Notes: generated by a model not told the origin, from the sequence alone. A stretch of 64,000 bases of DNA from Gammaproteobacteria bacterium (GCA_016194635.1 JACQBC010000001.1:62001-126000); one strand, 5' to 3'; positions 164 to 52,195 are shown, counted from the stretch's first letter. Numbers and translations: made by a program.

Positions 164-297
164 TACTACTGAGTCACATAGAAAGGATACCCTCCTATCA
201 AGACCGTCAGCCGCAGGGATGCGGCTGTCGAGTCTACAGGGAGGTATTGACGGCGTGTCTTGGTGGGAGGGTCTCCTTTCCATGTGACTCAGTAATA
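164..297. repeat. Hairpin-core intergenic element, copy 1
   Basis: Arms at 164-203 and 258-297 are inverted copies with a few mismatches (for example TACTGAGTCACAT against its complement). Between them lies the family core: CCGTCA 204-209 can pair with TGACGG 248-253, enclosing a hairpin GCCGCA-GGGA-TGCGGC and a second small hairpin around CTACAGGGAGGTA. The element fills the gap between two convergent genes. The arms closely match those of the copy at 39586-39718. There is no T-run, so it is not a standard intrinsic terminator. Confidence 0.85.
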
Positions 298-7773: not shown

Positions 7774-7878
7774 GGCCTTGGATCATAATGCAGCCACCCC
7801 ATTCCAACAACTGGCGATCCAGCCGAATTTATCGAGTTCCTAATCTAAAAATCGCCAGTACCGCCCAGGGATAACGAA

Positions 7879-8039
7879 GGCGTCGGCGGCCACCGGGGCC
7901 GGTCGGTGGCAGGGATGACGCACAAGCCGTGCTTAGTATTACGCCAGGCAGAGGCTGTGAGCGACTGCGCCCCCGAGCTTACATGGACGTATTTACAGCG
8001 AGCCCCTGCCACCGACCGACCCCGGTGACCGCCAACACC
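7879..8039. repeat. Hairpin-core intergenic element, copy 2 (divergent core)
   Basis: Arms 7879-7914 and 8004-8039 are inverted copies over 36 bases (GGTCGGTGGCAGGG pairs with CCCTGCCACCGACC), with four differences. All four are C on the left against T in the complement of the right, so they would be G-U pairs in RNA made from the minus strand. The enclosed region is longer and less conserved than in other copies, but GAGCTTACATGGACGTATT at 7975-7993 matches the second half of the core. It fills the gap between the secreted protein gene and the SulP gene; I see no other gene in 7774-8112. Confidence 0.75.
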
Positions 8040-8112
8040 TGCATCGCCACAACACCAAGCTAGTAATTTTTTGTTGGCCTAAGTCGGTAGTACGACGGAT
8101 CTAGACTATAAA

Positions 8113-21967: not shown

Positions 21968-22087
21968 GTTGCTGTTTGGCGGGTTAACCGGAGCGAGTGA
22001 CTCGCCGTAAATACATTCTTGTAGACTCGACGGCGGCATCCCTGCCGCCGACGGTCACTCGCCCCGGTTAACCCGCCAAACAGCAAC
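21968..22087. repeat. Hairpin-core intergenic element, copy 3
   Basis: Arms 21968-22000 and 22055-22087 are inverted copies over 33 bases with one mismatch; each contains GGGTTAACCGG. The core is in reverse orientation: read on the minus strand it has CCGTCGGCGGCAGGGATGC and then GAGTCTACAAGAATGTATT. It lies between the purA 3' end and the arsR promoter. Its arms resemble those of the copy at 52062-52195. Confidence 0.88.
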
Positions 22088-39544: not shown

Positions 39545-39585
39545 AACCAGGGACGGAATGACCTCCGCCCCCGCTCTAAGATTTA

Positions 39586-39718
39586 TTACTGAGTCACATG
39601 GAAAGGATACCCTCCAACCAAGACCGTCAGCCGCAGGGATGCTGCTGTCGAGCCTACAGGGATGTATTGACGGCGTGTCTTGGTCGGGGGGTATCCTTTC
39701 CATACGCCTCATTAGTAA
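39586..39718. repeat. Hairpin-core intergenic element, copy 4
   Basis: Arms 39586-39623 and 39678-39718 are inverted copies (ATGGAAAGGATACC pairs with GGTATCCTTTCCAT) with some differences at the outer ends. The plus-strand core has CCGTCAGCCGCAGGGATGC and GAGCCTACAGGGATGTATT, with TGACGG closing it. It fills the gap between the convergent moeA and kinase genes and ends directly against the kinase stop codon. Arms match copy 1. Confidence 0.87.
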
Positions 39719-44778: not shown

Positions 44779-44909
44779 AGAGTATTGAGGCCGGTGTTAT
44801 TGTACCCAGCGCTGCGACACGCAAACCCACATCCTTGTGGGCTCGACGGCCGCATCCCTGCGGCCGACGGTCGCAGCGCTGGGTACAATAACACCGGCCT
44901 CAATACTCT
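44779..44909. repeat. Hairpin-core intergenic element, copy 5
   Basis: Arms 44779-44817 and 44871-44909 are a perfect 39-base inverted repeat. The 53-base centre folds into two hairpins: CCCACA-TCCT-TGTGGG and CGGCCGCA-TCCC-TGCGGCCG. Read on the minus strand these are the family core (loops AGGA and GGGA). The arm sequence is unrelated to that of the other copies. It is the only copy between two divergent genes, 16 bases before the membrane protein ATG. Confidence 0.92.
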
Positions 44910-45056
44910 GCCACGCTGTTTAAGATTCTGCACAAAACACTTCAGTTCAAATTCAAAATACGCCAGATTTGATTGGGAATAGCGAGTTAACATTTTAAAT
45001 TCACTACAAAACACCCCACAGTGGTTTTATCCAGCGTCAACCGTTAAACTCACACC

Positions 45057-46547
45057 ATGTCACTCTACGCAGAACAACTCCCGCCGATCTCACTCTCGCG
45101 TGTTGAGATGGTCCGTGCCCTGCGGCGGATCCTGCCGGCGGACGCTATCTTACACCAACCTGAAAGCTTGCGGCCGTATGAATGCGATGGTTTGTCGGCC
45201 TATCGCGAATTACCCTGGGTGGTGGCGATTCCCGATACCCTCGCGCAAGTACAAGCGATTTTAAAATTATGCCACAGCCATAAAATTCCGGTGATTGCGC
45301 GTGGCGCCGGTACCGGATTATCGGGTGGCGCCCTGCCGCGCGATCAGTGTTTGTTACTGAGCATGGCCAAATTCAACCGCATTCTTAATCTTGATCCTGT
45401 GAATCGACTCGCTCGCCTGCAACCCGGGGTGCGCAATCTTGCTATCAGCGAGGCCGCTGCTGCCCATGGCTTGTATTACGCGCCTGATCCGTCATCACAG
45501 ATCGCCTGCAGTATCGGCGGTAATGTGGCGGAAAACTCCGGTGGGGTGCATTGTTTAAAATACGGCTTAACCGTACACAATGTCCTGGAAGTACAATTGC
45601 TGACGATGGACGGTGAATCGGTCAGCTTGGGATCCCAGGCACTGGACGGCCCGGGTTTGGATCTGCTGGCCGTAATCCACGGCTCGGAAGGTTTGTTGGG
45701 GATCATTACCCAAGTTACCGTGAAGCTCTTGCCCATACCTGAATGTGCCCAGGTAATGATGGCGGCGTTTGATAGTATCCCCGAGGCCGGCGCCGCGGTG
45801 GCGGCAATCATTGCCGCGGGTATCATCCCGGCTGGGTTGGAAATGATGGATAACTTGGCGATCCGCGCCGCGGAGGATTTTGTCCATGCCGGTTATCCCA
45901 CCGACGCCGCCGCGATTTTATTGTGTGAGCTTGACGGTAGCAATGCCGAAGTTTCTGAACAATTGTTGCGCGTGCATCACCTCTTGCAGGAATGCGGCGC
46001 TACTCGTTTACGCACCGCGAATAACGAGGCCGAACGGCTGCAACTGTGGAAAGGGCGTAAGTCCGCTTTTCCAGCGGTGGGGCGGTTATCGCCGGATTAT
46101 TATTGCATGGACGGCACCATCCCGCGCCGCGCCCTAGCCGGTGTGTTGCAATCCATCGCCGACCTGTCGCAACGTTACCAGTTACCGGTGGCCAATGTAT
46201 TTCATGCCGGGGATGGAAATTTACACCCGTTGATATTATACGATGCGAATAAACCCGGCGAATTGGTCAAGGCGGAACAATTCGGCGCGGAGATTTTGCA
46301 ATTGTGCATCGCCGTCGGCGGTACCATCACCGGCGAGCACGGGGTGGGCATTGAAAAGATCAATCAAATGTGCGCGCAATTTTCCAGCGCGGAGTTACAA
46401 CAATTCCATTCGCTCAAGCGCGCGTTTGATCCGGACGGCCTGCTTAACCCCGGCAAGGCCATTCCCAGCTTGCGGCGTTGCGCAGAACACGGAGCGCTGC
46501 ACGTGCATCACGGGAAATTAGCGCACCCCGGCTTGGAGCGTTTTTAA
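45057..46547 (+). CDS. glcD: Glycolate oxidase, FAD subunit GlcD
   Basis: A 496-residue flavoprotein that oxidises glycolate to glyoxylate. The FAD-binding domain has VIARGAGTGLSGGALP and DPSSQIACSIGGNVAENSGG; the C-terminal domain has NVFHAGDGNLHPLI and GGTITGEHGVGIEK. Followed after ten bases by glcE. D-lactate dehydrogenase relatives share these motifs, but the adjacent GlcE-type gene favours GlcD. Confidence 0.93.
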   Translation: MSLYAEQLPPISLSRVEMVRALRRILPADAILHQPESLRPYECDGLSAYRELPWVVAIPDTLAQVQAILKLCHSHKIPVIARGAGTGLSGGALPRDQCLLLSMAKFNRILNLDPVNRLARLQPGVRNLAISEAAAAHGLYYAPDPSSQIACSIGGNVAENSGGVHCLKYGLTVHNVLEVQLLTMDGESVSLGSQALDGPGLDLLAVIHGSEGLLGIITQVTVKLLPIPECAQVMMAAFDSIPEAGAAVAAIIAAGIIPAGLEMMDNLAIRAAEDFVHAGYPTDAAAILLCELDGSNAEVSEQLLRVHHLLQECGATRLRTANNEAERLQLWKGRKSAFPAVGRLSPDYYCMDGTIPRRALAGVLQSIADLSQRYQLPVANVFHAGDGNLHPLILYDANKPGELVKAEQFGAEILQLCIAVGGTITGEHGVGIEKINQMCAQFSSAELQQFHSLKRAFDPDGLLNPGKAIPSLRRCAEHGALHVHHGKLAHPGLERF

Positions 46548-46557
46548 TTGTAAGCAC

Positions 46558-47625
46558 ATGAATCAAACCGATCATAGCCGCGACTGGCAACAACAGATCC
46601 AGGAACATCACGCTAAAAAATCGCCCTTGATGATCATCGGTGGTAATAGCAAGGCGTTTTATGGACGCCGCGCTGACGCGACCCAGGTTTTACAAACCCG
46701 GGCCCATTGCGGCGTGATCGAGTACGAACCCGCCGAACTGGTGATCACGGCCCGCGCCGGAACACCCTTACGTGAAATTGAAACCACCCTTGCCCAACAC
46801 CAACAGATGCTCGGCTTCGAGCCACCGCATTTTGGTGAACATGCCACCTTAGGCGGCTGTATCGCGGCGGGTTTATCCGGCCCGCGCCGACCCTATAGTG
46901 GATCGTTGCGCGATCATGTTTTGGGAGTAACGGTGATCAATGGCCGGGCCGAACAATTACATTTTGGTGGCAAGGTTATGAAAAACGTCGCGGGTTATGA
47001 CCTCGCCCGTTTGTACGCGGGGAGTCTAGGAACCCTGGGGGTAATACTCGATGTTTCACTCAAGGTGTTACCACTACCGGAAACCGAACTCACCCTACGT
47101 TTTGAAATGCATGTCGAGCAAGCCCTAGCGAAGATGCAGCAAATCGCGCCACAACCCCTGCCCCTCTCCGCCGCCTGTTATGATGGTGCAGAATTATCCC
47201 TGCGTTTGTCTGGAACCCCGCAGGGGGTGCAACATGCCCGCAGCCTGCTCGGCGGGGAATCCGTGCCCAAAGCCGATCATTTCTGGCGGCAGGTACGCGA
47301 ACAAACGCACCCCTTCTTCCAACATCCCCAACCGTTATGGCGCATCGCCGTACCGCCAGCTACATCTATGATAACATTGGGTGACGCGCAATGGATCGAC
47401 TGGGGTGGCGCACAACGCTGGATGTATAGCGAAACGTCGTCGGAGGCTATATTCTCCCTCGCACAGCAACACGGCGGACATGCCAGTTTATTTCGCGGTG
47501 GTGAGCAACCCAGGGATGTCTTTCAGCCCTTGCACGGTAAACTCAAGGAACTGCATGTGAATACCAAACTTGCCTTTGACCCGCTATGCCTATTTAATCC
47601 CGGCCGGATGTATTCCTATTATTAA
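46558..47625 (+). CDS. glcE: Glycolate oxidase, FAD-binding subunit GlcE
   Basis: A 355-residue partner of GlcD. A shorter FAD-binding domain with ATLGGCIAAGLSGPRRPYSGSLRDHVLGV and KVMKNVAGYDLARLYAGSLGTLGVI, typical of GlcE. The third subunit, the iron-sulfur protein GlcF, normally follows but is missing here: the next gene is a PAP2 phosphatase after a 146-base gap with no fragment of glcF. Confidence 0.92.
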   Translation: MNQTDHSRDWQQQIQEHHAKKSPLMIIGGNSKAFYGRRADATQVLQTRAHCGVIEYEPAELVITARAGTPLREIETTLAQHQQMLGFEPPHFGEHATLGGCIAAGLSGPRRPYSGSLRDHVLGVTVINGRAEQLHFGGKVMKNVAGYDLARLYAGSLGTLGVILDVSLKVLPLPETELTLRFEMHVEQALAKMQQIAPQPLPLSAACYDGAELSLRLSGTPQGVQHARSLLGGESVPKADHFWRQVREQTHPFFQHPQPLWRIAVPPATSMITLGDAQWIDWGGAQRWMYSETSSEAIFSLAQQHGGHASLFRGGEQPRDVFQPLHGKLKELHVNTKLAFDPLCLFNPGRMYSYY

Positions 47626-47771
47626 ATCAAAGAACTGGTCGACCGCAGATTAAATACCCTAACAGGTATAAACCCAGCCTATAAGCACGTGTCATAAAAC
47701 CTTCACCGCGGTGTAATAATCCGGCCATCGCGCTACAGCATAGTTATCCGCATCAACCTAGGTAACTTGCC

Positions 47772-48311
47772 ATGGCCAGCACAACTGATCGAACCCGACT
47801 CGCGCGCGCAGTGGACTGGGAGTTGTCACTGTGTTTTCGTATCAACCATGCTTTTAGCCAGCAGCTAACGCAACGCCTGTTCGTCTTCATCAGCCGCCTT
47901 GGTGACGGTGTGTTTTGGTATAACTTGATTATTGCCTTGCCATTTATCTATGGCATCTCCGCGCTGGCGGTGTGCCTGCGCATGGGATTCGTGTCATTGA
48001 CCGGCCTGGCAATCTACAAACTCATTAAATCCTTCACTAGCCGTGAACGCCCCTATCGTAAACACGGCGCGATAAAACTCGGTACCCATCCCTTGGATCA
48101 TTATAGTTTCCCTTCCGGCCACACCCTGCATGCCGTGGGTTTCACTGCCACCGCCATGGTAAGTTACCCCGAATTGGGATGGTTATTGGTACCATTCAGC
48201 GCGTTGGTAGCAATGTCGCGTGTCGTGCTAGGACTGCACTACCCGACCGATGTTTTAGCAGGTGCTAGCATCGGCGCGGGCCTGGCTTATCTGAGTACGG
48301 TTCTTTTTTAG
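47772..48311 (+). CDS. PAP2 family membrane phosphatase
   Basis: A 179-residue membrane protein with the three acid phosphatase motifs: KSFTSRERP, PSGH (FPSGHTLHA) and SRVVLGLHYPTD. Such enzymes remove phosphate from lipids such as phosphatidate, undecaprenyl diphosphate or phosphatidylglycerophosphate. It is followed by a lipid-type glycosyltransferase and an LpxH-like phosphoesterase, which suggests a role in envelope lipid metabolism (inference). Confidence 0.88.
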   Translation: MASTTDRTRLARAVDWELSLCFRINHAFSQQLTQRLFVFISRLGDGVFWYNLIIALPFIYGISALAVCLRMGFVSLTGLAIYKLIKSFTSRERPYRKHGAIKLGTHPLDHYSFPSGHTLHAVGFTATAMVSYPELGWLLVPFSALVAMSRVVLGLHYPTDVLAGASIGAGLAYLSTVLF

Positions 48312-48365
48312 ATAATGTTCCACCCAGGCTAAGCCTCTAGCCTCTGTTCCCTGGGAAATAGTTGC

Positions 48366-49592
48366 ATGCGAATATTGATGATCTCCGATGTATATTTCCC
48401 GCGCGTCAACGGCGTATCGACATCGATTCAAACCTTCATGCACGAATTAGAGCGCCTCGGTCACGAGGTCCGGTTAATCGCCCCGGATTACGGACCAGGG
48501 CAAGAACCCCACGCGAACATACTGCGTATCCCGGCAGGTAGGGTGTGGTTCGACCCCGAAGATCGCATGCTGAAGTATTCCGTGGCAATGCGGATGCGGC
48601 AACATTTAATGCAACAAAAATTCGACCTGATTCATATCCAGACGCCGTTCGTGGCGCATTACCTGGGTGTGGCGCTGTCACGAGAATTTGGCATCCCCTG
48701 CGTGGAAAGCTATCACACCTATTTTGAGGAATACCTATTCCATTATGTACCGTTCTTGCCTAAGTCATGGCTAAGGTTTGCTGCGCGTTATCTTACCCGG
48801 CTGCAATGCAATGCGGTGCACGCCGTTATTGTTCCTTCCACGGCGATGCAACAGGTGTTGACCAACTACGGGGTACGCAAACCCTTACCTATTATTCCCA
48901 CCGGCATAGAACTAACGCGTTTTAAAGGGGGTGATGGCGCACGGTTTCGCCAACAACACGGCATCGATCCACAACGACCCGTGATGGTATTCATAGGCCG
49001 GGTAGCATTTGAAAAAAACATCGAGTTTCTGTTGCAAGTAGTGGACACCGTGCGTATCCGTCTACCAACGATATTATTGATCATTGCCGGCGAAGGCCCG
49101 GCGCTTGAAACCTTAAAGCGCGCGGTGCGTCGTATGCGATTGCACAGCCATGTGTTGTTCGTGGGATACTTGTCGCGTAACGACAGTTTATTAGATTGTT
49201 ATGTCGCCGCCGATATTTTTGTGTTTGCTTCGCGCACCGAAACCCAAGGCCTGGTATTGCTCGAAGCCATGGCCTTGGGGGTACCGGTCGTGTCCACCGC
49301 GCAGATGGGCACACGTGACATTTTACTTGCCCAGCGCGGCGCCCTGGTCGCTGCAGAAGACATCGAACACTTTTCTCAAGCGGTGATCCGTATATTCAAC
49401 AACGCCTTATTACGCGCGCGCTTAGCGCGTGAAGCCATGGAATATGTCAAAGAGTGGTCGGCCTTGGCCATGGCACATAAGCTGGTTGATTGTTACCAAC
49501 AGTTACTTGGACAACCCCCCACCCCGCACCCCAACCTTATCGCTACGCCACCCGCGCAACATCGGCTGTCGGTGCGTATAAATCCGCCTTGA
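48366..49592 (+). CDS. Glycosyltransferase, GT4 family
   Basis: A 408-residue GT-B enzyme. The N-terminal acceptor half starts MRILMISDVYFPRVNGVSTSI; the C-terminal nucleotide-sugar half has VFIGRVAFEKN, VGYLSRN and the E-x7-E motif in ETQGLVLLEAMALGVPVV. It resembles sugar transferases acting on diacylglycerol or phosphatidylinositol. The last 50 bases overlap the end of the opposite-strand phosphoesterase gene. Confidence 0.9.
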   Translation: MRILMISDVYFPRVNGVSTSIQTFMHELERLGHEVRLIAPDYGPGQEPHANILRIPAGRVWFDPEDRMLKYSVAMRMRQHLMQQKFDLIHIQTPFVAHYLGVALSREFGIPCVESYHTYFEEYLFHYVPFLPKSWLRFAARYLTRLQCNAVHAVIVPSTAMQQVLTNYGVRKPLPIIPTGIELTRFKGGDGARFRQQHGIDPQRPVMVFIGRVAFEKNIEFLLQVVDTVRIRLPTILLIIAGEGPALETLKRAVRRMRLHSHVLFVGYLSRNDSLLDCYVAADIFVFASRTETQGLVLLEAMALGVPVVSTAQMGTRDILLAQRGALVAAEDIEHFSQAVIRIFNNALLRARLAREAMEYVKEWSALAMAHKLVDCYQQLLGQPPTPHPNLIATPPAQHRLSVRINPP

Positions 49593-50358
49593 GGGCGAGT
49601 TGCCGATCCGACCAATGAATCAATTCCAGGCTGCCGTCGTATTTTTCAACCAAGGCGGTGCAATTCTCCACCCAGTCGCCGTCATTGCAGTACAACACCC
49701 CGTCGATGTTGCGTATCTCGGGATGATGGATATGGCCGCAGATCACCACATCCATGTGACGGTGTTTGGCTTCACGCGCCACGCTCGCCTCGAATCGACG
49801 CACATGGTTGCGTGCGTTGCGGATATTGTTCTTGATGTAACCGGCCAAGGACCAATATCCATACCCACAATAACGCCGCAGTTTATATAAGATACGATTA
49901 ATAAACAGCAGGCCGTCATAACCGATATTGCCGATAAAATCCCAGCCCCGGCCGCACGACAGCAGTGCATCAAATTTATCGCCGTGCAATAGCAACACCC
50001 GGCGGCCATCGCGGGTCGTGTGTACGTATTCCGTGTGGATGGAGAGATTACCAAACACCGCACCATCGAATTCGCGTAAGGACTCGTCGTGGTTGCCGGG
50101 GATATAGATCACCTTGGTGCCGTGTTTGGCCTTACCCAGAATAGTGCGAACCACATTGTTATGTGACTGCGGCCAATACATGGTTTTACGCATCGACCAC
50201 AGATCGATAATGTCGCCCACCAGAAACAGGTAGTCCGTCTCTACCGTGCGCAATAAATCCAGCAGATAGTCCGCCTTGCAGCCCCGATAGCCCAGATGCA
50301 CATCGGAAATCCAGATCGCGCGATATTTTAACGGCTGAATTTGATGTAAGGGTGTCAT
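49543..50358 (-). CDS. LpxH-like metallophosphoesterase
   Basis: A 271-residue calcineurin-type enzyme (ATG 50358; an in-frame ATG at 50403 is less likely). Metal-binding motifs SDVHLG, VGDIIDLW, PGNHDE, HGDKFD and CGHIHHP are all present. It resembles UDP-2,3-diacylglucosamine pyrophosphatase relatives but is longer than LpxH, so the substrate is uncertain. It is convergent with, and overlaps, the glycosyltransferase gene by 50 bases. Confidence 0.87.
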   Translation of the reverse strand: MTPLHQIQPLKYRAIWISDVHLGYRGCKADYLLDLLRTVETDYLFLVGDIIDLWSMRKTMYWPQSHNNVVRTILGKAKHGTKVIYIPGNHDESLREFDGAVFGNLSIHTEYVHTTRDGRRVLLLHGDKFDALLSCGRGWDFIGNIGYDGLLFINRILYKLRRYCGYGYWSLAGYIKNNIRNARNHVRRFEASVAREAKHRHMDVVICGHIHHPEIRNIDGVLYCNDGDWVENCTALVEKYDGSLELIHWSDRQLALKADLYAPTADVARVA

Positions 50359-50437
50359 CACGGCGGCTACCCGATATAGATTGGGATGAGTATCGCCGGC
50401 CAATGTTACACTGGTCGGTCAGCACGATGAAACTTCG

Positions 50438-52042
50438 ATGACCGTGACAGGCAGTATGAATGTGGTACACTCAATAAATACCAATAACGTTACGGGCTAC
50501 TCTACATCGATGCAACGCCCCCAGTCCATGCAACAGTCTCAGCCAATAGCGGTGCCACAAACCTTGGCCGCCGTCGATTTAGGTTCCAATAGTTTTCATC
50601 TGATGGTGTGCCGGGTACAAAACACCCAATGGGTCGTGGTTGATCGTCTACGTGAACCGGTGCGCCTAGCCGCCGGGATCGACCCGGACAATAATTTGAG
50701 TCACGCCGCTCAAGGACGGGCGCTTGCCTGTCTGACGCGCTTTGGCCAACGCCTGGCGCAGATCCCGCCCAACTGTATCCGGGTTGTGGGTACCAACACC
50801 CTGCGCAGCGTGCGCAACGCCAGCCAATTTATTAAAGCCGCCGAAGCTGTGTTGGGCCATCGCATTGAGATCATCTCCGGTGTGGAAGAAGCGCGGCTGA
50901 TCTACCAGGGCGTGGCGCATAGCAGCGCCGCCGACAAACACCGCCGCCTGGTCATCGACATTGGCGGCAGCAGTACCGAACTGATCGTCGGCGAAAATTA
51001 TCATCCCCTGCATATGGAAAGCCTGCACATAGGTTGTGTCAGCCTGTCAACGCAATTTTTTGCCGAGGGGCGCATCAGCAATAAAGCCATCAAATCGGCG
51101 GAATTGTCGGCGCTACAGGAATTTGAATTGGTGGTTGCGCATTACAAACGTCTAAAATGGCAAACCTGTATCGGGGCCTCGGGGACGATTCGGGTCATTG
51201 ATCGCATCCTCAGCGCTACCGGCTGGTCAAAACAAGGCATCAGCCGCGAAGGCCTTAAACTGTTGGTTAACCATCTGCGCGAACGTAATCACATCAGTGA
51301 GTTGAATTTGCCCGAGCTGGATGCGGAACGCGCGGCCGTATTACCCGGCGGGGTGATGATCCTCGCGGCCGCCTTCAAGGCCTTGGACATCGATCACCTG
51401 CGTGTCTCCGAGGGCGCCCTGCGCGAGGGATTGATCCACGACTTGTTAGGACGTTTCCAACACGAAGACGTGCGCGCCTCCAGCGTTAATGCCCTGGCCG
51501 ATCGCTACCATGCCGATCGGGAACAGATCCAACGCGTTACCCACACCGCGCAGGATTGTTTCACACAAGTCGCCGCGGATTGGAATTTAGAGAGCGACCA
51601 TGATGCCCAATGGCTGTACTGGGCGGTTAGCTTGCATGAAATTGGCCTGGATATCTCGCATAGCCACTATCAGAAACACGGTGCCTATGTGATCGAACAC
51701 ACCGATCTAGCGGGTTTCTCGCGCCAAGAGCAACAATATTTAGCGCTCTTGGTCCTCGCGCACCGACGTAAATTTCCCGATAAGAATTTTCGCGAGCTGC
51801 CCCAGCCACAAGAAAAAACCGCGCGCCGCCTGGCGGTACTGTTACGCCTGGCGGTGCTGTTACACCGTAGCCGTAATACCGAACCGCTACCTAAAATTGG
51901 TTTACACGCCAAGGGTAAAACCCTAACGGTGCGATTCCCGCCCCAGTGGTTGGCCAATCACCCGCTGACCGAAGCGGATTTACAACAAGAGGCGCACTAC
52001 TTACAAGACGCGGATATTACCTTGAGTGTGGAAGAGATTTAG
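50438..52042 (+). CDS. ppx: Exopolyphosphatase
   Basis: Ppx/GppA-family enzyme that releases phosphate from polyphosphate. The N-terminal domain has AAVDLGSNSFHLMVCR and the phosphate loop VIDIGGSSTELIVGE; the C-terminal HD-like domain has SLHEIGLDISHSHYQKHGAY. The start may be at 50438 or at ATG 50510; the region before AAVDLGSN is longer than normal. Convergent with ppk with a repeat element between. Confidence 0.92.
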   Translation: MTVTGSMNVVHSINTNNVTGYSTSMQRPQSMQQSQPIAVPQTLAAVDLGSNSFHLMVCRVQNTQWVVVDRLREPVRLAAGIDPDNNLSHAAQGRALACLTRFGQRLAQIPPNCIRVVGTNTLRSVRNASQFIKAAEAVLGHRIEIISGVEEARLIYQGVAHSSAADKHRRLVIDIGGSSTELIVGENYHPLHMESLHIGCVSLSTQFFAEGRISNKAIKSAELSALQEFELVVAHYKRLKWQTCIGASGTIRVIDRILSATGWSKQGISREGLKLLVNHLRERNHISELNLPELDAERAAVLPGGVMILAAAFKALDIDHLRVSEGALREGLIHDLLGRFQHEDVRASSVNALADRYHADREQIQRVTHTAQDCFTQVAADWNLESDHDAQWLYWAVSLHEIGLDISHSHYQKHGAYVIEHTDLAGFSRQEQQYLALLVLAHRRKFPDKNFRELPQPQEKTARRLAVLLRLAVLLHRSRNTEPLPKIGLHAKGKTLTVRFPPQWLANHPLTEADLQQEAHYLQDADITLSVEEI

Positions 52043-52061
52043 CAAAATAGCCGTTCCAAAA

Positions 52062-52195
52062 TGATGAGGTTGGTGGTTGCCGGGTTAACCGGAGCAGGTG
52101 ACCGTCGGCGGCAGGGATGCCGCCGTCGAGGCTACAGGGATGTATTCACGGCGAGTCACCTGCTCCGGTTAACCCGGCAACCACCAACCTCATCA
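52062..52195. repeat. Hairpin-core intergenic element, copy 6
   Basis: Arms 52062-52102 and 52155-52195 are a perfect 41-base inverted repeat containing CCGGGTTAACCGGAGC. The plus-strand core has CCGTCGGCGGCAGGGATGC, then GTCGAGGCTACAGGGATGTA. It fills the gap between the convergent ppx and ppk stops. The arms are related to copy 3 but not identical. Confidence 0.92.

What the first reader, a model, noticed from the sequence alone, without database searches (positions are those of the whole stretch)
44779..52195. Arms differ between loci but each arm perfectly matches its own partner
Copy 5 (39 bp) and copy 6 (41 bp) have perfect inverted arms with unrelated sequence, around the same core. 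Copies 1 and 4 share arms, copies 3 and 6 share a GGGTTAACCGGAGC segment, and copies 2 and 5 are unique. Independent mutation would decay perfect 40-bp pairing, so there is either strong selection for pairing, frequent arm-to-arm copying (hairpin-templated repair), or an insertion process that creates an inverted duplication of whatever flanks the core. The last would be an unusual kind of mobility.
Basis: partly seen in the sequence, partly recalled or inferred. Interest (0 to 1): 0.75.

Follow-up and report, generated by a model that had tools for sequence, protein, structure and literature searches.

The report
Dispersed hairpins with paired GGA loops
The six hairpin copies belong to a widespread family of chromosomal elements in one large group of bacteria: the long arms can take almost any sequence as long as they pair, and they hold up two small loops that look like docking sites for the regulatory protein CsrA.

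Summary
Copy 5 (44779-44909) has perfect 40-bp arms, copy 6 (52062-52195) perfect 41-bp arms, unrelated to each other, around one core. The genome holds about 121 cores; about 50 copies share near-uniform arms, over 35 have their own. The core recurs across Gammaproteobacteria with different arms in each lineage.

I ran the proposed check in Marinobacter. At one intergenic site the arms differ between species yet pair within each (97.7% of cells paired; 18 of 25 pairs changed on both sides; covariation 0.63 against 0.11 or less when slid). Sixteen empty sites contain neither arm. So the arms changed together, and the 'inverted duplication of the flank' reading is not supported.

Residual mispairs outside the window's genome are strand-biased (G.T 132 : A.C 29), so one strand is folded and selected, probably as RNA. 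Both core hairpins present C-ANGGAN-G loops about 23 nt apart while their stems vary, matching the CsrA/RsmA site (RUACARGGAUGU).

Best reading: a dispersed RNA hairpin displaying a two-site CsrA ligand on a stem of free sequence. CsrA binding is inferred, not shown. Arm-to-arm copying may also contribute. No mobiliser was found.

The parts
44779..44818 (-). Copy 5, arm (40 bp, perfect partner of 44870-44909)
   Evidence: arm I2
44819..44869 (-). Copy 5, core on the - strand: two hairpins with AGGGAT and AAGGAT loops
44870..44909 (-). Copy 5, second arm (40 bp)
   Evidence: arm I2
52062..52102 (+). Copy 6, left arm (41 bp, perfect partner of 52155-52195)
   Evidence: arm I1
52103..52154 (+). 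Copy 6, core; hairpin 1 at 52107-52124 (GGCGGC-AGGGAT-GCCGCC), hairpin 2 at 52133-52144 (TAC-AGGGAT-GTA); the two GGAs are 23 nt apart
   Evidence: loop motif
52155..52195 (+). Copy 6, right arm (41 bp)
   Evidence: arm I1
164..297 (+). Copy 1, family A (arms 164-204 / 257-297, 88% paired)
7878..8040 (+). Copy 2, arms 7878-7914 / 8004-8040 (89% paired), longer core
21968..22087 (-). Copy 3, family B, arms 21968-22001 / 22054-22087 (97% paired)
39583..39718 (+). Copy 4, family A (arms 39583-39624 / 39677-39718, 83% paired)

Best explanation
Each copy is one unit of a dispersed chromosomal family that folds, from one strand, into a long stem (about 25-49 bp) capped by a head of two (sometimes more) short hairpins with C-ANGGAN-G loops. 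Only the pairing of the stem and the GGA loops are kept. Stem and arm sequences evolve freely by paired changes, so arms differ between loci but match their own partner. The folded strand is most likely RNA, and the head most likely binds the regulator CsrA/RsmA as a two-site ligand (one dimer bridging both loops), so that transcripts carrying it hold or titrate CsrA. Shown here: the paired arms, co-change of the arms at orthologous sites, strand-specific selection on pairing outside the window's genome, conservation of GGA loops on changing stems, and empty sites without arms. Inferred: that the folded strand is RNA, that CsrA binds it, what it does for the cell, and how it spreads.
For: Covariation at one orthologous site: 97.7% of cells paired, 18 of 25 pairs changed on both sides, score 0.634 against 0.109 or less when slid, 0 of 500 shuffles as high. 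G.T over A.C mispairs in the arms on the core strand: 132:29, 52 organisms against 8, p about 5e-9; symmetric in both arms, 63:15 and 69:14; Marinobacter alone 66:9. GGA in the hairpin-1 loop in 200 of 215 copies on 58 different 6-nt stems. Unrelated cores at one site keep the same two-ANGGAN-hairpin layout. The loop, the GUACAGGGAUGU match and the 23-nt spacing fit the published CsrA rules (PMC7652899). csrA is present in the window's genome and in 17 of 19 other genomes searched, 18 of which carry the core.
Against: No binding or transcript data. Orientation to neighbouring genes is near random, unlike a classical leader or 3'UTR element. In the window's own genome the G.T bias is absent (14:12 in family B). 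G.T wobble also stabilises folded single-stranded DNA, so RNA is not proven. csrA was not found in two core-bearing genomes (G021 and G364, fragmented or incomplete). Stems here are longer than in most CsrA SELEX ligands. Rfam's Ysr224 transcript is the opposite strand.
Confidence: 0.6

Rival explanations
1. Arm-to-arm copying: during replication or repair the palindrome folds and one arm templates the other (quasi-palindrome correction), so a mutation appears on both sides at once. Pairing is then a by-product of the palindrome rather than selected.
For: Arm lengths at the Marinobacter site range from 23 to 29 nt but are equal on both sides in 26 of 29. Several ortholog comparisons show only mirrored changes, e.g. 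L391 v L417 2 mirrored and 0 one-sided, L381 v L389 3 and 0. Family B in the window's genome shows no G.T bias, as copying predicts.
Against: The strong, symmetric G.T bias elsewhere needs selection on one folded strand. One-sided drift also occurs. Some site comparisons may reflect whole-allele replacement rather than stepwise change.
Confidence: 0.2
2. Folded single-stranded DNA: the element is a non-autonomous mobile element whose single strand is recognised as a hairpin by a transposase or recombinase (as REPs by RAYTs, or attC sites by integron integrases); loops and pairing are kept for mobility.
For: Many dispersed copies, MITE-like family A, filled and empty sites and an opposite-orientation insertion at one site, near-random orientation to genes. 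Y1_Tnp genes occur in 12 of 15 other core-bearing genomes.
Against: No Y1_Tnp in the window's genome. The six Y1_Tnp genes examined are not flanked by the core. No transposase family is linked to the elements. Not seen in phage, plasmid or viral-contig collections. Conservation of ANGGAN on changing stems fits CsrA better than any transposase site I know of.
Confidence: 0.13
3. Insertion that makes an inverted duplication of whatever flanks the core.
For: Unrelated perfect arms around one core within a genome, such as L049 with 49 bp.
Against: Empty orthologous spacers contain neither arm beyond chance. The one-armed site L420 keeps part of a right arm like that of its relatives and looks like a deletion remnant. 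Arms at a fixed site keep changing together. About half of the family B arms resemble one consensus, so arms travel with the element.
Confidence: 0.04

Closest known systems
CsrB/CsrC and RsmX/Y/Z sRNAs (CsrA/RsmA antagonists)
   Same: Repeated hairpins with GGA in the loop, on one strand; spacing that allows bridging by a CsrA dimer
   Different: Those are one to a few dedicated sRNA genes with promoter and terminator; this is a dispersed family of up to about 120 loci with two hairpins on a long stem and no terminator seen
TwoAYGGAY (RF01731) and Bacillaceae-1 (RF01690) RNA motifs, proposed CsrA-binding in PMC4333381
   Same: Two apical AYGGAY/GGA loops on a shared stem, predicted CsrA ligands
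   Different: Neither family is among the Rfam matches of the elements searched at relaxed thresholds
Ysr224 (RF02770), Yersinia sRNA
   Same: Its model aligns through the whole core, including both loops, of L091, copy 6 and L168
   Different: Opposite strand; scores are below the family's cut-off (38.5 against 70 bits); described as a single sRNA, not a repeat family
REPs/BIMEs with RAYTs; CGTC-REPs (PMC3733652)
   Same: Dispersed intergenic palindromes; that paper also reports REP dimers lying within long palindromes in Anabaena variabilis and Halothiobacillus neapolitanus
   Different: REPs are 20-40 bp with a fixed unpaired tag; here the stem sequence is free and the loops are what is kept; no RAYT in this genome
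MITEs (NEMIS, ERIC, Nezha, Correia-like)
   Same: About 130-bp palindromic non-coding elements in many copies; family A here looks like one
   Different: MITE ends are conserved for a transposase; family B arms are not conserved, and no cognate transposase was found

Membership tests
CsrA/RsmA ligand RNA | GGA in a hairpin loop, consensus RUACARGGAUGU, hexaloop ANGGAN | tested here: met
   GUACAGGGAUGU in hairpin 2; GGA in 200 of 215 hairpin-1 loops on 58 stems
CsrA/RsmA ligand RNA | Two sites 10-63 nt apart on one RNA | tested here: met
   GGAs 23 nt apart in copy 6; range from PMC7652899
CsrA/RsmA ligand RNA | Selection on the RNA-like strand | tested here: met
   G.T 132: A.C 29 in other genomes; not seen in the window's own genome (14:12)
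CsrA/RsmA ligand RNA | Binds CsrA; is transcribed | not testable with these tools
   needs gel shift, CLIP-seq, RNA-seq
REP/BIME mobilised by a RAYT | Resident RAYT (Y1_Tnp) flanked by the repeat | tested here: not met
   none in the window's genome; the six RAYT loci examined in other genomes are not flanked by the core
CGTC-REP | Conserved unpaired CGTC at one end of a stem of 8-9 bp with a 4-5 nt loop | tested here: not met
   the CGTC position varies (TGTC, CCTC, CGTA and others) and loops are mostly ANGGAN hexamers
MITE | Conserved terminal inverted repeats shared by copies | tested here: inconclusive
   met for family A, not for family B
MITE | Target-site duplication and a parent transposase | tested here: inconclusive
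   filled and empty Marinobacter spacers too diverged to read a duplication; no linked transposase family
TwoAYGGAY / CsrB / RsmZ (Rfam) | Rfam model match | tested here: not met
   no match at gathering threshold in the window nor among relaxed matches

The most novel reading that the evidence does not exclude
A widespread, previously unrecognised gammaproteobacterial family of chromosomal elements acts as a distributed set of CsrA/RsmA-binding RNA heads, spread over tens to about 120 loci per genome. The head is presented on long stems whose sequence is free and is refreshed by fold-back copying between arms, and whole heads can be exchanged at a locus.
Probability: 0.35. Interest if true: 0.88.

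Novelty: new variant of a known kind. Interest (0 to 1): 0.74.

Why it matters
CsrA/RsmA is a global regulator thought to be titrated mainly by a few dedicated sRNAs. If dozens of dispersed hairpins also bind it, part of the CsrA budget of many Gammaproteobacteria is set by a repeat family nobody counts. The family is also a natural experiment on how long perfect palindromes keep pairing while their sequence changes, and it makes selection versus arm-to-arm copying directly testable.

Tried and rejected
G001 (same genus, no copy matching the pattern) was tried for empty sites, but its spacer at copy 5 is unalignable. RAYT mobilisation: no Y1_Tnp in this genome. Linked transposase: only common gene families near the elements. 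Phage or plasmid carriage: no match. Inverted duplication of flanks: not supported. A mutational bias of one arm as the source of the G.T excess: rejected, because the excess is symmetric. Rfam microRNA hits were dismissed as generic long hairpins. Literature: searches on the core motif, on Ysr224 and on CsrA with repeats, REPs or MITEs found no description of this family; the library holds only open-licence papers, so an earlier description elsewhere is possible.

Full report
OBSERVATION. The window holds six copies of a palindromic element. Copy 5 (44779-44909, core on the - strand) and copy 6 (52062-52195, + strand) have perfect arms of 40 and 41 bp with unrelated sequence around the same core. 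Copies 1 and 4 share arms (88% and 83% paired). Copies 3 and 6 share part of their arms. Copies 2 and 5 stand alone. The core of copy 6 reads GACCGTC-GGCGGC-AGGGAT-GCCGCC-GTCGAGGC-TAC-AGGGAT-GTA-TTCACGGCGAGTC: two hairpins, each with an A-N-GGA-N loop. Copy 2 has a longer core.

GENOME-WIDE. The core occurs 121 times in the 3.7-Mb genome, with none for the reversed-pattern control (89 with an earlier pattern). I read 88 copies with flanks. Fifty form family A, with nearly uniform arms ending TACTAATGAG...CTCAGTAATA, MITE-like. The other 38 form family B. Each family B copy has its own arms, mostly 90-100% paired with their partner, up to 49 bp perfect in an AT-rich sequence (L049), although roughly half resemble a consensus GTTGGTGGTTGCCGGGTTAACCGGTGCGGGTGAC. 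No Y1_Tnp transposase gene was found in the genome; csrA is present.

DISTRIBUTION. The core was found in 28 of 369 sampled genomes of the class and in at least 118 stretches of a public genome set: Marinobacter, Microbulbifer, Halopseudomonas/Pseudomonas, Rheinheimera, Luteimonas, Shewanella, Zobellella, Oceanimonas, Porticoccus, Sedimenticola and others, all Gammaproteobacteria as far as the record titles tell. The arms differ between lineages. No exact core was found in viral contigs and no core hit in plasmid or phage records. Rfam's Ysr224, a Yersinia sRNA, aligns through the whole core on the opposite strand, below its cut-off.

THE DECISIVE COMPARISON. Eleven Marinobacter genomes carry 5-19 copies each, and 53 pairs of copies from different species share both flanks. 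I then compared one site across 120 Marinobacter genomes. Of these, 52 match the query nearly end to end. I read 30 of those plus 20 of the others. Sixteen spacers of 31-89 nt are empty and contain neither arm beyond what shuffled spacers give. L420 keeps a piece of right arm and looks like a deletion remnant. L419 has an element in the opposite orientation with other arms, probably an independent insertion. In 29 occupied orthologs the left arm equals or nearly equals the reverse complement of the right arm, although arms differ between species. For 14 distinct 25-nt arm pairs, 97.7% of cells are paired, 18 of 25 positions changed on both sides, and the covariation score is 0.634 against 0.109 or less for any slid pairing and none of 500 shuffles as high. 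The arms therefore change on both sides together at a fixed site, and they are absent from empty sites.

SELECTION OR COPYING. If only DNA copying kept the arms alike, leftover mispairs should be as often A.C as G.T, since a transition gives one or the other depending on the side. In other Gammaproteobacteria G.T outnumbers A.C 132 to 29, with more G.T in 52 organisms and more A.C in 8. The excess is symmetric between the arms (63:15 and 69:14), so it is not a mutational bias of one arm. Marinobacter alone gives 66:9. The strand carrying the GGA loops is therefore folded and selected. In the window's own genome the bias is absent (family B 14:12; family A 43:31, not significant), so there the pairing may be kept by copying, or the copies are recent. 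In favour of some copying, arm lengths at the Marinobacter site range from 23 to 29 nt yet are equal on both sides in 26 of 29, and several comparisons show only mirrored changes. One-sided drift also occurs (L163/L270, L188/L237; L372/L373). Some comparisons mix different core types at the site, so replacement of whole alleles may account for part of the pattern.

WHAT THE HEAD IS. Across 215 copies the first hairpin's loop contains GGA in 200, on 58 different 6-nt stems; family A and other related copies contribute many of these, so the 215 are not independent. The second hairpin's stem varies as well. At the Marinobacter site some species carry a core of unrelated sequence with the same two ANGGAN hairpins inside very similar arms (L385 v L417). 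What is kept is two C-ANGGAN-G loops. That is the recognition element of CsrA/RsmA: SELEX consensus RUACARGGAUGU, six-nt loops, bridging of two sites 10-63 nt apart with an optimum above 18 nt (PMC7652899). The common core's GUACAGGGAUGU fits all 12 positions, and the two GGAs lie 23 nt apart. This rests on sequence only. CsrA-binding RNAs with two such loops have been predicted before (TwoAYGGAY, Bacillaceae-1; PMC4333381), but not, in what I could search, as a dispersed high-copy family.

WEAK POINTS. Orientation to neighbouring genes is close to random, with divergent promoter regions least used. That fits neither a simple 3'UTR element nor a leader. A folded single DNA strand could also give the G.T excess. 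No mobiliser was identified, and the spacers are too diverged to read a target duplication. Arm boundaries and gene calls come from my own simple procedures, and the loci were found with patterns that fix most of hairpin 2, so only hairpin 1 and the arms are unbiased tests.

VERDICT. The finding is real. Selection for pairing is supported, arm-to-arm copying is possible in addition, and inverted duplication of flanks is not supported. The most likely identity is a dispersed RNA hairpin presenting a two-site CsrA-type ligand; CsrA binding needs an experiment.

Noticed in passing
L385 and L417 (Marinobacter, same intergenic site): Two unrelated core types, both with two ANGGAN hairpins, sit within nearly the same arms at the same site: the head appears to have been swapped or the allele replaced.
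   Followed up: partly
L091:1472-1559 + strand: Rfam family Ysr224 (Yersinia sRNA) is very probably the opposite strand of this element, which would make that Rfam entry part of a repeat family.
   Followed up: partly
window 7878-8040; L028, L051, L092, L101, L125: Longer cores carry additional hairpins with GGA-type loops (CAAGGAAG, CAGGATG, CAAGGATG) between the arms.
   Followed up: no
L001, L040, L044, L045, L054 (own genome): Family B copies often come as divergent pairs about 300-450 bp apart, with no obvious gene between them.
   Followed up: no
L206, L267: In these cores one GGA hairpin appears inverted (CCATCCCTGG / CCATCCATGG on the core strand).
   Followed up: no
L417: In this Marinobacter genome the second core hairpin carries an insertion of several tens of nucleotides in its loop.
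   Followed up: no
own genome, about 50 loci incl. window 164-297 and 39583-39718: Family A looks like a recent MITE-like burst with ends TACTAATGAG...CTCAGTAATA and possibly a TA target; its mobiliser was not found.
   Followed up: partly
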